64,000 bases of DNA from Armatimonadota bacterium (GTDB lineage: Bacteria > Armatimonadota > Fimbriimonadia > Fimbriimonadales > Fimbriimonadaceae), in NCBI GenBank assembly GCA_037138755.1, contig JBAXHT010000002.1:124001-188000 (forward strand), read 5' to 3'. The position numbers were made by a program, and so were the translations under genes. Positions 27,501 to 32,337 of the stretch are shown here, in pieces (position 1 is the first letter of the stretch; the number at the start of each line of letters is the position of its first letter). The notes below the pieces were generated by a model. It saw only the letters and a list, made by a program, of their open reading frames with translations. It was not told the DNA's origin and made no database searches.

Positions 27501-27515
27501 TCTCATTCGACTCGT

Positions 27516-27540
27516 CCCCTCGATTTTGAGGGGATTTTTT
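27516..27540 (+). terminator. Rho-independent terminator
   Basis: CCCCTC/GAGGGG stem (27516-27521 with 27528-27533) with GATTTT loop, then ATTTTTT. It closes the upstream membrane-protein gene and insulates the capsid operon. Confidence 0.85.
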
Positions 27541-27550
27541 ATGCATTAGG

Positions 27551-27578
27551 TTGACAATAGCGCACATACGTCTACTAT
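27551..27578 (+). promoter_or_regulatory. Promoter of the capsid operon
   Basis: A consensus TTGACA (27551-27556), 16-base spacer and TACTAT (27573-27578). Predicted start near 27585, three bases before ATG 27588, i.e. essentially leaderless. Strength of the -35 is unusual among promoters in this window. Confidence 0.7.
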
Positions 27579-27587
27579 ATAGTGACC

Positions 27588-28487
27588 ATGATCGCAAACG
27601 ACACAACGATCGCCGAAGCGCGACTCGACCTCTTGCGGCGGGCTGCCCTTGCGGGACCTGGATACCGGGGAACTAGGAATGAAGTCAGCGAGGCCACCCG
27701 CCTTGCATTGGTGGCTGAGTTCCGAGACCAAGGACTCCAGGCTCCGGCGTACCTCACTCATCCAACCAGTTGGGTCGAGCGGCGCGCCAAGCTCTTCGAG
27801 GCCGGCGACTACCCCGATAAGGGAGTCTCCGTCTCGACCGAGAATCTGCAAGCCATTGCCACCAACTTCGACCTCCCCGTCCCGGTGCTCATCGAGCACG
27901 GCGACTCGCCTCTCCACCTCGGCTTCCTCATCGCGGTTGATGCGGATGGGGCTAACCTCACGGGCCTAATCGCCCTCACCAGCGAAGCCGATCAGCTCCT
28001 CATCCAGAGCGGTGCTCAGAGCCTTTCGGTGGGTCTCGAACGAGACCTTGAGCACATTCGCGAAGTTAGCGTCGTCCGAAACCCTCGGATAGAGAGTGCG
28101 CGACTGTTTGACACGCGCCCCCTGTTCAGCAGTGGCTTTGCGGATGTTGACTACGCAAAGCTTGCTCACCAGGCCCAAGTTGAAAGCCGGAAGCGGGAAG
28201 CAGGGAGTCGGGTTGAAGAGTTCGTCAATCGCGGCCAGCTTGCGCCCCGCCAGGCAAAGATTGCAACGCTGCTCTTTGCCTGCGATGCGGAAGTCAACGG
28301 GCAGCCGGTCGCCGATCTTGTGAACCAGCTCCTCGAGGATTTCCCAAAATCGAACATCTTCAGCCAGCAGGCTCCGGCCGCCGCCGACCACGAGTCGGCA
28401 CTTAACCTACTTCTCCCCGAAGAGTCGGCGTTTTACCGCCGTCACTTCCCCGGAGTTGACCTCAGCGAAATCGCCAAACGGCGCTAA
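27588..28487 (+). CDS. Mu I-like head maturation protease/scaffold
   Basis: 299 residues from ATG 27588 (a GTG two codons upstream is unlikely). The N-terminal half has the Mu-I-type prohead protease layout: PVPVLIEHGDSPLHLGFL (~98-115) with a candidate catalytic His and AQSLSVGLERDLEHIREVSVV (split: AQSLSVGL then ERDLEHIREVSVV) with a candidate Ser (~146). The C-terminal half is helical with GQLAPRQAKIATLLF, resembling the scaffold tail of protein I/Z. Such enzymes process the scaffold during prohead assembly. First gene of the capsid operon. Confidence 0.68.
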   Translation: MIANDTTIAEARLDLLRRAALAGPGYRGTRNEVSEATRLALVAEFRDQGLQAPAYLTHPTSWVERRAKLFEAGDYPDKGVSVSTENLQAIATNFDLPVPVLIEHGDSPLHLGFLIAVDADGANLTGLIALTSEADQLLIQSGAQSLSVGLERDLEHIREVSVVRNPRIESARLFDTRPLFSSGFADVDYAKLAHQAQVESRKREAGSRVEEFVNRGQLAPRQAKIATLLFACDAEVNGQPVADLVNQLLEDFPKSNIFSQQAPAAADHESALNLLLPEESAFYRRHFPGVDLSEIAKRR

Positions 28488-28493
28488 CCAACC

Positions 28494-28919
28494 ATGCCAG
28501 CACTTACCAAACCTTACGAAACATACGAAAAGCCGGGGATCGTTGTGAGCTACAACGTCGGCACGAACACCACCATCTACAAGGGTGCCCTAGTCGGCGT
28601 CAATGCATCGGGCAACATCGTTTCCATGACCCACGTAACCGCCAACCTCAAGTTCGTCGGCGTGGCCAACGAGACAGTCGTAACCACAGCGGCGACCAAG
28701 CGAATCACCATCACCAAGTCGGGAACGTTTGTCTTCCCGACTCCCTCCCCGAATACTAACAAGACCGGAGGCGATGCCTGGGCTAAGTTCGATGGCGAGG
28801 TCCAAGACGCCGCAACTGGCCTGACCAACGCATACATCGTCGGCACCATCGTCGGAGTTGAATCAACCTCCGACGGCCTCGGCGGCTACCGAGTCCGCAT
28901 CGACAACCACACAAAATAA
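28494..28919 (+). CDS. Small decoration-like (DUF2190-like) capsid protein
   Basis: 141 residues, beta-rich and Thr/Val-rich, beginning MPALTKPYETYEKPGIVVSY. The size, the Ala/Thr/Gly-rich segments and the position between the protease and the major capsid gene fit DUF2190-type decoration/stabilising proteins (Mu gene 33 position). Gap to the preceding stop is 6 bases and to the following start 2 bases. Family membership is by context and overall pattern, not a clear motif. Confidence 0.6.
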   Translation: MPALTKPYETYEKPGIVVSYNVGTNTTIYKGALVGVNASGNIVSMTHVTANLKFVGVANETVVTTAATKRITITKSGTFVFPTPSPNTNKTGGDAWAKFDGEVQDAATGLTNAYIVGTIVGVESTSDGLGGYRVRIDNHTK

Positions 28920-28921
28920 CC

Positions 28922-29827
28922 ATGGCACTTACCAAATCAGATATCCCCGATCTTCTTCTCCCTGGCCTCAGGGCCGAATTCGCGCTTGCTTATCGCAATG
29001 AGCAGCAAGCCGACGTCGTCTCGCAACTCGCGACCGTCATTCAGACAACTCAGCCGATTCAGCGGTACCCGCTTTTAGACAACGCTCCCGCTATGCGAGA
29101 GTTTGTTGATGAGCGGCGGGCGTCTGGCCTCACGGCTCAAGCGATCAGCATCGAGGACAAGGTCTTTGAATCAACCATCGCGGTCGACCGAAAGGCTCTT
29201 GAGGACGATCAGCTCGACCTGATCCGCCTGCGGATCCGCGACCTCGCAAACCGAGTTGTCCACCACCGGCACGAGTTGGTGGTTAATACCCTCACCGGCG
29301 GCACAGACATCATTGGTTACGATGGTGCGGCTCTGCTCTCGGCAAACCACCCGGAGGCGGGCGGAACGGCTTCTAACGTCAGTGCTGAGTCTCTCGGGGC
29401 CGTGGGGCTTCGGGCGGCTTGCTCGGAGATGATCTCGCGACGCGACAACGAAGGAGTTCCGCTCGGCATTAGTCCAAACGTGCTGCTCGTCGGTCCGCAG
29501 AACATGTGGACAGCAATCGAGCTGGTCGACAGCAAAGGCACTTCCCAATCATCTGGCGTTGTGAACGTGTTCAACGGACTTCTCAAGGTCGTAGTCTCGC
29601 CGTTTGTGACCGATGAGAGTTGGTATCTGCTCGATACAACTCGACCGATGCGAGGAGTTATTCTGCAGCAGCGAAGCGACGTACCGGTTGAGTTTGCCGC
29701 CTTGGAATCCGCCAAAGGGTCGGATTCGGCGTTCTTCAGCGACAGGTTCTACTACGGCGTTAGGGCTCGCTACAATGCCGGGCCGGGAATGTGGCAGACG
29801 GTGTTCGGCGGGGGCATCGAACTCTGA
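28922..29827 (+). CDS. Major capsid protein, Mu gpT-like (HK97 fold)
   Basis: 301 residues. Recognisable gpT features: FVDERRASGLTAQAISIEDK (~50-74), TIAVDRKALEDDQLDL (~79-95), the loop GGTASNVSAESLG, VLLVGPQNMWTAIELV and the C-terminal FFSDRFYYGVRARYNAG (~270-290). The family forms the icosahedral head shell of Mu-like and related phages. No portal or terminase gene is in the flanks. The stop TGA overlaps the next ATG (TGATG), so translation is coupled. Confidence 0.85.
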   Translation: MALTKSDIPDLLLPGLRAEFALAYRNEQQADVVSQLATVIQTTQPIQRYPLLDNAPAMREFVDERRASGLTAQAISIEDKVFESTIAVDRKALEDDQLDLIRLRIRDLANRVVHHRHELVVNTLTGGTDIIGYDGAALLSANHPEAGGTASNVSAESLGAVGLRAACSEMISRRDNEGVPLGISPNVLLVGPQNMWTAIELVDSKGTSQSSGVVNVFNGLLKVVVSPFVTDESWYLLDTTRPMRGVILQQRSDVPVEFAALESAKGSDSAFFSDRFYYGVRARYNAGPGMWQTVFGGGIEL

Positions 29828-30069
29828 TGGACTGGCTCCAGATCGCTTCTAGTCTGGGGCTGGGAGGAGCTGTGGGCGCCATTGTAGGCGTCCTCGCCGC
29901 CACCCAGAACGCCAAACAGAGGTTCGACGAGTTGAACGAGGCGGTCATCAAAGTCGCTCCGGAGGCTCGATCAAAGATTCAGACCCAGTTCGAGGAGTTC
30001 AAAGCGGCGTTTGATCGACTCAAGGTCGCCCTCGACCTTTTAAGGAGGGCAATGAAACGAAATACATGA
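29827..30069 (+). CDS. Single-TM coiled-coil microprotein of the capsid operon
   Basis: 80 residues: a transmembrane helix (~9-27, GLGGAVGAIVGVLAA) and an amphipathic, Lys/Glu/Phe-rich coiled-coil tail (~33-75). No lytic or holin domain can be assigned with confidence, though the layout resembles small phage holin-like proteins. It overlaps the major capsid stop by 1 base and the next gene by 4, so it is tightly integrated in the operon. Confidence 0.65.
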   Translation: MDWLQIASSLGLGGAVGAIVGVLAATQNAKQRFDELNEAVIKVAPEARSKIQTQFEEFKAAFDRLKVALDLLRRAMKRNT

Positions 30070-30311
30070 TGGAAACACAGAGTTTAGGCGTGATTGGCCT
30101 GTTCATCGTTGCGATGGCGGGCCTTCTTCGTTTTGGGATGATGCAACATCGGCGGCTTGCCGACCAGTTTGTCCAGTTCCTTGAGCGCTCGTTTGAGCAG
30201 CGCGAGGGGCTGACGAATCGCATGATGACGACGCTTGAGTCGCTCTCGGCGAATGTTGGTGAGAACTCAAACCTTTTGCACCGGATCATGAACCAGTTGA
30301 GGGTGGCTTAG
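30066..30311 (+). CDS. Second single-TM coiled-coil microprotein of the capsid operon
   Basis: 81 residues: N-terminal transmembrane helix (~6-22, GVIGLFIVAMAGLLRFG) followed by a cytoplasmic or periplasmic helix (QFVQFLERSFEQREGLTNRM, ~35-54). Similar architecture to its neighbour but no sequence identity by eye. Could be a BhlA/holin-like protein, yet no endolysin gene is near. Overlaps both neighbours. Confidence 0.62.
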   Translation: MMETQSLGVIGLFIVAMAGLLRFGMMQHRRLADQFVQFLERSFEQREGLTNRMMTTLESLSANVGENSNLLHRIMNQLRVA

Positions 30312-30703
30312 TGCCAATCTCGCTGCCGACCGACCGCATCTTGGAACGATGCGGTTTGGCGGGAACGGGGACGGTTTACTCGTCGCGAGTGTCGAACTTG
30401 GCCGGGGAGTTTGCGGCGGCGTTTAATGCGATGCTGCTTCCTTCTGCGCTTGAAGACGAGTCGCTGACCTGGGCGGTGTCTCAGGGAGTAATCGACTTGG
30501 TCGCGGCGGACTTCGTCGAGATTCTGCGGAGAGAACCTGGCTCGACGGACGTCATTACGATTGGAGACCTTCGGATCGAACCCTCACCTTATAGCACAGC
30601 CGAGCAGATGCGTCAGCGCGGCTGGGCGCGGCTGATGCCGTTTATGAAACGCGACATGATTCCAGAGGACCCCCGCGTGCTTGGCTCGGGAGACCGAGGA
30701 TGA
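30311..30703 (+). CDS. Head-tail connector-like protein
   Basis: 130 residues starting at GTG 30311 (the base overlaps the previous TAG). Helical N-terminal half (ILERCGLAGTGTVYSSRVSNL), then TWAVSQGVIDLVAADFVEILRREPG, a pattern like small connector/adaptor proteins of phage heads (the gp35-36 position of Mu-type heads). Assignment rests on position and general fold; no family motif is sharp. Overlaps the next gene by 4 bases. Confidence 0.5.
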   Translation: MPISLPTDRILERCGLAGTGTVYSSRVSNLAGEFAAAFNAMLLPSALEDESLTWAVSQGVIDLVAADFVEILRREPGSTDVITIGDLRIEPSPYSTAEQMRQRGWARLMPFMKRDMIPEDPRVLGSGDRG

Positions 30704-31026
30704 GCTTGAGGCTGGATCGGATCGCCAGGGCAATCCAACGCTTTGGGTCGGTGGTGACGGTAGACGGGGTTAGTCTGCTAGCTGTCATGAGACCCATTGC
30801 AATCGGGCAGTTGCAGACCTACGTAAGTAGCGGGGGCTTTGCCAGTTGGGAGCGACCCGTTTACGTTGGCCTCTTCCTGCCTTCTGCGCCATTGGCCGAG
30901 GAGGATGACTTTCTGGGGCCAGACTTCGAGGGCAAGGTCAAGCAGATTACGCCGATTCGAGTTATGAGTGAGCTGGTCGCAAGACAGGCGATCATCCAAG
31001 TGATCACGCCTCCCGTGGCTCCTTAA
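30700..31026 (+). CDS. Small phage neck/tail-joining-like protein
   Basis: 108 residues, beta-rich: RLDRIARAIQRFGSVVTVDG, then LLAVMRPIAIGQLQTYVSSG and VKQITPIRVMSELVARQAI. Size, position at the end of the head module and beta pattern fit a head-closure or tail-completion protein, but I do not recognise a family. It is the last gene before a hairpin. Overlaps the preceding gene by 4 bases. Confidence 0.48.
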   Translation: MSLRLDRIARAIQRFGSVVTVDGVSLLAVMRPIAIGQLQTYVSSGGFASWERPVYVGLFLPSAPLAEEDDFLGPDFEGKVKQITPIRVMSELVARQAIIQVITPPVAP

Positions 31027-31062
31027 AACAAAAACACCCCATTGCCCGTAGCAATGGGGTGT
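31024..31062 (-). terminator. Hairpin between the capsid operon and the Lys/Asp-rich gene
   Basis: A 12-base perfect stem ACACCCCATTGC/GCAATGGGGTGT (31034-31045 with 31051-31062) with CCGTA loop. On the minus strand it is followed by TTTTTGTTTT, so it is a proper terminator for the Lys/Asp-rich gene; on the plus strand the U-run is lacking, but the hairpin directly follows the capsid operon. Confidence 0.75.
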
Positions 31063-31082: not shown

Positions 31083-31868
31083 TTAGTTGCCGCCGCTCTT
31101 CTTATCGTCTTTCTTCTCGTCCTTCTTATCGTCTTTTTTTGACTTGGTGTCCTTCTTTGACTTGCTGGACTTCTTGGTGTCGTCCTTCTTATCGTCGGTC
31201 TTCTTAACTTCGTCCTTCTTGGACTTAGTTGACTTCATAGACTTGTCGTCAGCTTTCATCTCGTCAGCCTTCTTCTCGTCCTTCTTGCCACGGGTCGACT
31301 TAGAATCCTTCTTCTCGTCAGTCTTCATGGTCTCACCCTTCTTGTCGTCTTTCTTACTTCGAGTTGATTTGGTATCCTTCTTCTCGTCTGGCTTCATCGC
31401 CTCGCCCTTCTTGTCGTCTTTCTTCAAGAACCGACCGGTCTTAGCATCGCGACCACTAGCGGTAGGCTTTGTTTCGACCTTCTTGTCATCCTTCTTAGTT
31501 GACTTAGCATCAGGCTTCTTCTCGTCCTTTTTGACGTCTTTCTTGTCATCTTTCTTTGCGGCACCCTCTGCTCGGGAGTAAGTGACCAGAACTTGAGAAG
31601 CTTTAATGGTTTTTCCGGAGAGCTTTCCGGTGACCGAAACCATGGTTCCACCCACGATTTTGGAAACTTCGAATCGGCGTCCATCGTAGCTGACCTTGGC
31701 ACTGCTGCAGTCAACGGTGAACTCCCCCTTTCGCGAACCGAGGGTGAACTTGGTAGCGGAGGGGGTTCCCTTCGCGATTCCCGATACACTAAACGTTTCG
31801 TCTTGTTTGGCGTTAACTGCACCAACGGCGAGGGCAAAAACTAGAGTAGGTAAGATTTTTTTCAGCAT
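31083..31868 (-). CDS. Secreted OB-like (DUF5666-type) protein with a long Lys/Asp-rich tail
   Basis: 261 residues from ATG 31868 (AAGGAG about 11 bases upstream; a longer reading to 31967 would cross the divergent promoter). Signal peptide ~1-19, then an ~80-residue beta domain (FSVSGIAKGTPSATKFTLGS.., GTMVSVTGKLSGKTIKASQV) like DUF5666 OB domains. The last ~155 residues are a low-complexity tail of repeating KKDDKK, KSTK and EKK blocks, perfectly in frame and without stops. Function unknown; a polyampholyte surface or nucleic-acid/metal-binding tail is plausible. Confidence 0.72.
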   Translation of the reverse strand: MLKKILPTLVFALAVGAVNAKQDETFSVSGIAKGTPSATKFTLGSRKGEFTVDCSSAKVSYDGRRFEVSKIVGGTMVSVTGKLSGKTIKASQVLVTYSRAEGAAKKDDKKDVKKDEKKPDAKSTKKDDKKVETKPTASGRDAKTGRFLKKDDKKGEAMKPDEKKDTKSTRSKKDDKKGETMKTDEKKDSKSTRGKKDEKKADEMKADDKSMKSTKSKKDEVKKTDDKKDDTKKSSKSKKDTKSKKDDKKDEKKDDKKSGGN

Positions 31869-31965
31869 CAATGCTATTCTCCTTGGGAGACTCTGCCTAA
31901 TTGTACAACCAAACTCCGAATCGGGGTAGGTATTTCTACCGGGCGGGCTCGTACCAGATAGATTC

Positions 31966-32337
31966 ATGGATAAAACCCTTCAACACTATCGAATCTACTG
32001 CTACTTGAACATGGCCTGGTACGCCTTTCTTTGTTTTCTGGGTTTCGCCGGCTTGTTTCTGTCTCGAACCGCTGATCCGGAAGTGCTGCCACCTGAGAAT
32101 CGCGGAGTGTTCCAAATAGCGTCTTTCGCACTGGTCGTCATGGGGGTGGTGTTTGGACTTACCAATCTCTCGCTGATGCGACAGCCCAGAAGCCCGAAAG
32201 CGCACTTGGCGCATTTCGTCAACATTTGCCTGGGAATTTCGACGTGCCTTCTCGCCCCATACTGCATCTGGCTCGCCATGCGTTGGCAGCAGCCAGATTT
32301 GAAGGCTTACTTCGACCAACAAGACTTCAAGCTCTGA
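31966..32337 (+). CDS. Small membrane protein of unknown function
   Basis: 123 residues with three hydrophobic segments (~12-31, 49-68, 82-102) and short charged loops. No recognised family; the short acidic-to-basic C-tail LKAYFDQQDFKL is cytosolic by the positive-inside rule if the helix count is odd. It is divergent from the Lys/Asp-rich protein gene and convergent with the esterase gene, whose 3' end it overlaps by 11 bases. Confidence 0.58.
   Translation: MDKTLQHYRIYCYLNMAWYAFLCFLGFAGLFLSRTADPEVLPPENRGVFQIASFALVVMGVVFGLTNLSLMRQPRSPKAHLAHFVNICLGISTCLLAPYCIWLAMRWQQPDLKAYFDQQDFKL

What the first reader, a model, noticed from the sequence alone, without database searches (positions are those of the whole stretch)
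27551..31062. Self-contained phage-head operon without DNA-packaging, tail or integration genes
Seven tightly overlapping genes (protease/scaffold, decoration-like, Mu gpT-like capsid, two membrane microproteins, two connector-like proteins) sit between a strong terminator (27516) plus consensus promoter (27551) and a hairpin (31034-31062). Flanks are ordinary host genes. No terminase, portal, tail, lysis or integrase gene is seen, and the ORFs are intact rather than eroded. From knowledge of Mu heads, this is the I-33-T-neck slice of a head module. Intact reading frames suggest it is maintained for a function other than phage growth: a domesticated capsid, gene-transfer-like particle, nanocompartment or a satellite that borrows packaging genes.
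Basis: partly seen in the sequence, partly recalled or inferred. Interest (0 to 1): 0.8.

Follow-up and report, generated by a model that had tools for sequence, protein, structure and literature searches.

The report
Dispersed, apparently tail-less GTA-like phage head
The operon is one part of a former phage whose intact head-building and DNA-packing genes are now scattered around the chromosome, passed from parent to offspring across much of the bacterial phylum Armatimonadota without any recognisable tail genes; it probably makes DNA-filled particles that serve the bacterium, an apparently tail-less variant of a gene transfer agent.

Summary
In detail: a seven-gene operon (27588-31026) encodes a prohead protease, a decoration protein, a Mu gpT-type major capsid protein, two small membrane proteins, a neck adaptor-like protein and a head-closure (stopper) protein, under purifying selection. 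The partner terminase (ATPase and nuclease motifs intact) and Mu-type portal lie about 94 kb upstream. Across 61 relatives, capsid, portal and terminase are present or absent together although unlinked, and their trees recover host families. In deep-branching Armatimonadota the same genes form one cluster: TerS-TerL-portal-protease-decoration-capsid-(spike)-adaptor-stopper-membrane protein-endolysin. No tail or integrase gene was seen there. Five tail families searched genome-wide are absent from this genome; a phage with a related head carries its tail genes immediately after the neck genes. Best reading: a domesticated, vertically inherited GTA-like viriform that lost its tail and, in Fimbriimonadales, was dispersed over two or more loci. 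DNA content and transfer are untested; an unrecognised tail is not excluded. A satellite, nanocompartment or decaying prophage is disfavoured.

The parts
27514..27535 (+). intrinsic terminator of the upstream host gene
27551..27578 (+). sigma-70-type promoter TTGACA-16-TACTAT, conserved in two close relatives; transcript would be leaderless
   Evidence: a similar GGTTGACA element lies just upstream of the distant terL gene
27588..28487 (+). g1: prohead maturation protease / scaffold
   Evidence: phrog_976 6.1e-8; invariant His106/Ser149 (numbered from GTG 27582)
28494..28919 (+). g2: head decoration / virion structural protein
   Evidence: phrog_1731 6.4e-13
28922..29827 (+). g3: Mu gpT-type major capsid protein
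   Evidence: PF10124 1.7e-48, phrog_371 2.2e-52; at most one complete copy in each relative apart from a distant second homologue in G041
29827..30069 (+). g4: small protein, one N-terminal hydrophobic helix plus amphipathic helix; holin-like candidate
   Evidence: hydropathy; conserved; weak sub-threshold YtxH match
30066..30311 (+). g5: small protein, one N-terminal hydrophobic helix; holin-like candidate
   Evidence: hydropathy; 95-99% identical in close relatives, dN/dS 0.02-0.04
30311..30703 (+). g6: helical neck adaptor-like protein
   Evidence: AlphaFold pLDDT 83; best PDB matches mostly phage connectors but weak, E about 1
30700..31026 (+). g7: head-closure (stopper) protein
   Evidence: AlphaFold pLDDT 87; PDB matches T1 stopper, lambda, Pam3, SPP1 gp16, probability 1.00, best E 2.4e-3
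31034..31062 (-). 13-bp hairpin with T-run on the minus strand; terminator of the convergent gene, possibly shared

Best explanation
The operon is the head locus of a domesticated, vertically inherited phage remnant that works like a gene transfer agent. The capsid protein assembles with the protease/scaffold around a Mu-type portal encoded about 94 kb away. The terminase encoded next to the portal pumps DNA in; adaptor and stopper close the head, and the decoration protein stabilises it. Membrane proteins, and in the contiguous relatives an endolysin, would release the particles by lysis. The element appears to have lost the tail module that related phages carry right after the neck genes, so delivery would be by a tail-less route (for example a capsid-borne spike and uptake through the host competence machinery). 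SHOWN: gene identities, intact catalytic motifs, purifying selection, co-inheritance of unlinked parts, congruence with host families, the contiguous arrangement in deep branches, no hit for the tail families tested in this genome. INFERRED: particle formation, packaging of (mostly host) DNA, lysis, transfer, true absence of a tail.
For: Portal PF06074 E 5e-63 and terL in the same genome, contig C2. TerL Walker A (GRRWGKT), Walker B (DEAA) and the acidic nuclease residues are conserved in 13 homologues. Co-occurrence in 61 genomes: capsid/portal 38 both, 19 neither, 4 discordant, Fisher 1e-11; portal/terL 39 both, 20 neither, 2 discordant. Tree distances: MCP-portal r=0.92, MCP-terL 0.81, each with recA 0.60-0.72, Mantel p at most 0.0005; the order, f2, f5 and f1+f5 are clades in the MCP, portal, terL and protease trees, whereas the decoration tree and recA itself do not recover all groups. 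Capsid in 125 of 291 genomes searched from the phylum, usually one copy. Contiguous TerS-TerL-portal-g1-g2-MCP-spike-g6-g7-membrane-endolysin clusters in f31-f35; amidase_3, M15 and M23 endolysins and a TerS. Tail families PF10145, PF04865, PF13550, phrog_33 and phrog_8462 absent from this genome. Control: phage L156 with a related head has tape measure, Dit and tail genes right after the neck genes. dN/dS well below 1 in all nine genes.
Against: No particle, packaged DNA or transfer has been shown. Tails were excluded only by five profile families; a divergent tail elsewhere is possible, and keeping adaptor and stopper genes fits a tail joining. TerS and endolysin were not located in the window's own genome. 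The decoration-gene tree is not fully congruent. Many same-genus genomes (mostly the larger ones) lack the element, so it is dispensable. Congruence with recA is moderate, so some horizontal exchange is possible. MAG-based genomes may be incomplete.
Confidence: 0.6

Rival explanations
1. A tailed GTA: the same domesticated, dispersed element, but with tail genes in further loci too divergent for the profiles used.
For: The genes are demonstrably dispersed; adaptor and stopper are retained; described GTAs are tailed and often spread over multiple loci (PMC9662315).
Against: In the contiguous clusters of f31-f35 the position where the tail module sits in phage L156 is taken by membrane proteins and endolysin, then host genes. 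Five tail families are absent in this genome and sporadic in the others.
Confidence: 0.22
2. A head-only satellite that takes tails from a helper phage, like capsid-forming PICIs.
For: Same logic of gene content: own terminase, portal, capsid and connectors, no tail (general knowledge of cf-PICIs; background in PMC10803314).
Against: No integrase, AlpA or replication gene was seen in or next to the clusters examined; unlinked loci cannot excise as one element; vertical inheritance over a phylum; no tail-bearing helper prophage detected in this genome by five tail families.
Confidence: 0.06
3. A domesticated head-plus-lysis system whose benefit is not gene transfer: e.g. packaging and protecting DNA, releasing extracellular DNA or nutrients, or self-sacrificing lysis.
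For: No recognisable delivery apparatus; small membrane proteins and endolysins in the contiguous relatives.
Against: A complete DNA-packaging path (protease, portal, terminase, stopper) under purifying selection is more than lysis or eDNA release needs.
Confidence: 0.1
4. A decaying or ordinary prophage fragment.
For: Genes are of phage origin; ordinary Mu-like prophages do occur in some relatives.
Against: Intact ORFs, low dN/dS, co-inheritance of unlinked parts, host-congruent trees; the ordinary prophages have a different portal type and tail genes at other loci.
Confidence: 0.02

Closest known systems
Gene transfer agents (RcGTA, BaGTA, BhGTA; viriform families Rhodogtaviriformidae, Bartogtaviriformidae, Brachygtaviriformidae)
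   Same: Caudoviricete-derived head and packaging genes, fully chromosomal, in multiple loci, vertically inherited with the host (criteria in PMC9662315).
   Different: Mu gpT/Mu-portal head lineage; a host phylum for which no GTA paper was found in the searched library; no recognisable tail; distribution over many families of a phylum. DNA packaging and transfer not shown.
Bacteriophage Mu and Mu-type siphophages (head module)
   Same: Mu-type portal, gpT capsid, Terminase_6 family TerL, protease and decoration genes in the same order as in the viral contigs.
   Different: No transposase, integrase, tail, early or late regulators seen; portal and terminase separated from the capsid operon in Fimbriimonadales.
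Capsid-forming PICIs
   Same: Encode own capsid and packaging genes but no tail (general knowledge; background in PMC10803314).
   Different: No integrase, AlpA or replication genes seen; unlinked loci; vertical inheritance.
Encapsulin nanocompartments
   Same: Virus-derived HK97-fold shell used by the host (PMC8346489, abstract; HK97 fold of gpT is general knowledge).
   Different: Here with protease, portal, stopper and terminase, and no associated cargo enzyme identified.

Membership tests
Gene transfer agent (criteria of PMC9662315) | caudoviricete-derived proteins form the particle | tested here: met
   by sequence and fold; the particle itself was not seen
Gene transfer agent (criteria of PMC9662315) | genes fully endogenised, often in multiple loci | tested here: met
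   two loci about 94 kb apart in G000; in family f2 capsid, portal and terL mostly at three places, with one exception in which terL lies next to the head operon
Gene transfer agent (criteria of PMC9662315) | mostly vertical inheritance, co-diversification with host | tested here: met
   moderate congruence with recA, decoration tree only partly congruent
Gene transfer agent (criteria of PMC9662315) | encapsidates mostly random host DNA | not testable with these tools
   needs sequencing of nuclease-protected DNA
Gene transfer agent (criteria of PMC9662315) | own genes cannot all be packaged | tested here: inconclusive
   loci 94 kb apart make joint packaging unlikely, but head capacity is unknown
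Gene transfer agent (criteria of PMC9662315) | delivers DNA to other cells | not testable with these tools
   ComEC is present in 60 of 61 genomes, so uptake machinery exists but does not discriminate
Tailed GTA (the described GTA particles) | tail genes | tested here: not met
   five families absent in G000; unrecognisable tails not excluded
Capsid-forming PICI | integrase/AlpA/replication genes, excisable unit | tested here: not met
   none recognised among the genes next to the clusters inspected; not searched by profile genome-wide; the loci are unlinked in Fimbriimonadales
Encapsulin | shell plus cargo enzyme, no packaging motor | tested here: not met
   portal and terminase with intact motifs co-inherited
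Mu-like prophage | transposase, tail and regulators in one element | tested here: not met
   flanks are host genes; tail families absent in G000

The most novel reading that the evidence does not exclude
A truly tail-less gene transfer agent: a phage head, packaging and lysis system kept by vertical descent across many families of Armatimonadota, which ships host DNA without a phage tail, using a capsid-borne spike or the recipient's competence machinery for entry.
Probability: 0.35. Interest if true: 0.92.

Novelty: new variant of a known kind. Interest (0 to 1): 0.78.

Why it matters
Three GTA groups were formally evaluated and classified in 2022 (PMC9662315). A further, independently domesticated lineage, present in 125 of 291 Armatimonadota genomes searched here, with its genes still contiguous in deep branches and dispersed in Fimbriimonadales, would show how a GTA is built from a phage step by step, and would raise the testable question of whether DNA-filled capsids can transfer genes without a tail.

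Tried and rejected
Myovirus-type tail (baseplate J) and siphovirus-type tail (PF10145, PF13550, phrog_33, phrog_8462): none in G000. I looked for a distinguishing link with competence: ComEC is near-universal and uninformative. NCBIfam added nothing beyond prohead-protease/MCP fusions. Full-text searches for papers on GTAs or this capsid in Armatimonadota or Fimbriimonas found none relevant. Considered and rejected: nanocompartment, satellite borrowing packaging genes, decaying prophage (see rivals). The lone second TerL in G000 (L122) has no portal or head genes around it and was not taken as part of the element.

Full report
Observation. The seven ORFs reported at 27551-31062 are present and intact. 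Profiles identify g3 as a Mu gpT-type major capsid protein (PF10124 1.7e-48, phrog_371 2.2e-52), g1 as a head maturation protease (phrog_976) and g2 as a virion structural protein (phrog_1731); g4-g7 have no convincing family match. In 66 homologues of g1 a His and a Ser are invariant, as expected of a serine protease (the catalytic role is inference). AlphaFold models from alignments of 34 and 30 relatives give g6 as a helical protein (pLDDT 83) and g7 as a beta-rich fold (pLDDT 87). g7 matches head-closure proteins of T1, lambda, Pam3 and SPP1 with Foldseek probability 1.00 although E-values are only 2e-3 to 2e-2; g6 matches connectors weakly (E about 1). g4 and g5 each have one hydrophobic N-terminal segment; 'holin-like' is a guess from architecture. 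The promoter TTGACA-16-TACTAT at 27551 and the terminator at 27514-27535 are real sequence matches; one promoter match is expected by chance, but this one is conserved in two relatives. The hairpin at 31034-31062 has its T-run on the minus strand.

The missing parts. A genome search for the Mu portal family found one strong hit in this genome, C2:55597-56505, about 94 kb from the operon (window = C2:124001-188000), and hits in 47 of 61 relatives but in none of 14 control genomes. Next to it lies a 421-aa terminase large subunit (PF03237 4e-13, PF17289 3e-10) in which Walker A, Walker B and the acidic RNase-H residues are conserved in 13 homologues. Flanking genes there are ordinary host genes. 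In family f2 the terminase and portal are mostly alone at separate places; in one genome (G059) terL is next to the head operon, and in G034 portal and terL are within 4 kb of the capsid gene.

Co-inheritance. Counting strong matches in 61 genomes, capsid and portal agree in 57 (38 both, 19 neither), capsid and terL in 55, portal and terL in 59; Fisher p 1e-11, 6e-10 and 4e-14 (genomes are related, so these p-values overstate independence). Patristic distances of MCP and portal correlate at r=0.92, MCP and terL at 0.81, and each with recA at 0.60-0.72 (Mantel p at most 0.0005). With outgroup rooting, the order and the families f2 and f5, and f1+f5, are clades in the MCP, portal, terL and protease trees; f1 is too, though with negligible support in terL; the decoration tree does not recover the order, and recA itself does not recover f1. 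All nine genes evolve under purifying selection (dN/dS 0.02-0.26 where dS is finite; several comparisons are saturated). Flanks are conserved among close kin and, downstream, among G011, G014, G015 and G029. Within family f1, element-bearing genomes are smaller (median 3.0 versus 4.1 Mb).

Depth and ancestral form. A search of 291 genomes of the phylum found the capsid in 125, usually as one copy, with scores falling with taxonomic distance; the Mu portal family is in 144 (this count includes ordinary prophages). In families f31-f35 the genes are contiguous: TerS, TerL, portal, g1, g2, capsid, one or two variable proteins, g6, g7, small membrane proteins and, in several, an endolysin (amidase_3 in L180, M15 in L177, M23 in L193 by profile; others by sequence resemblance), then host genes. 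In f19 the portal lies just downstream of g7 and a 352-aa fibre-like protein sits between capsid and g6. So the two-locus form of the window's genome is most simply read as derived.

Tail. PF10145, PF04865, PF13550, phrog_33 and phrog_8462 have no match in this genome. Where they occur in relatives they are sporadic and, for PF13550, coincide with a second, different portal type, i.e. ordinary prophages. As a control, viral contig L156, with a capsid about 35% identical, has a connector, tape measure, Dit and minor tail genes directly after the capsid. The contiguous chromosomal clusters have membrane and endolysin genes at that point instead.

Interpretation. The simplest account is a domesticated head, packaging and lysis system inherited vertically. 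Of the six GTA criteria of Kogay et al. (PMC9662315), three are met by sequence evidence, one is inconclusive and two need experiments. Lack of a recognisable tail is the unusual feature. Delivery without a tail is speculation; ComEC is present in 60 of 61 genomes but that does not discriminate. Identity of the host: two relatives correspond by contig number and length to a Fimbriimonas sp. MAG and an uncultured Armatimonadetes MAG, so the window is most likely from Fimbriimonadales; this is inference.

Limits. Genomes are mostly MAGs; 'absent' may mean unassembled. TerS and endolysin were not looked for genome-wide in G000. Literature was searched only in the open-access library.

Noticed in passing
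G000 contig C1:1389759-1391033 (L122:9760-11034): A second, lone terL paralogue (about 57% identical) without portal or head genes nearby; G016 has one too (L123:84-1415).
   Followed up: partly
L192:14220-17990: In one deep-branching genome a ParB-like gene and a ComEC-like competence gene lie just downstream of the contiguous head/lysis cluster (identified by eye from sequence, no profile run).
   Followed up: no
L192:10510-11547: The variable protein between capsid and neck genes carries a DUF2961 domain (6e-12); in f19 and L179 unrelated 352- and 1005-aa proteins occupy the same slot, possibly exchangeable spikes.
   Followed up: partly
L182:4564-5619, L055:11378-12451: A 352-357-aa fibre-like protein between capsid and g6, found only in HRbin16-like genomes among the loci read, with no family match.
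   Followed up: partly
window 31083-31967 (-): Lysine/aspartate-rich low-complexity protein (KKDDKK repeats, 14 copies of a 41-nt repeat) directly downstream of the operon; no Pfam match.
   Followed up: no
G041:C1:668500-688499 (L070), G026, G029, G024 second portals: Ordinary Mu-like prophages with a different portal type coexist with the dispersed element in several relatives.
   Followed up: partly
G035: Has portal and terL but no capsid match, although 99% complete; a partial loss or an assembly gap.
   Followed up: no
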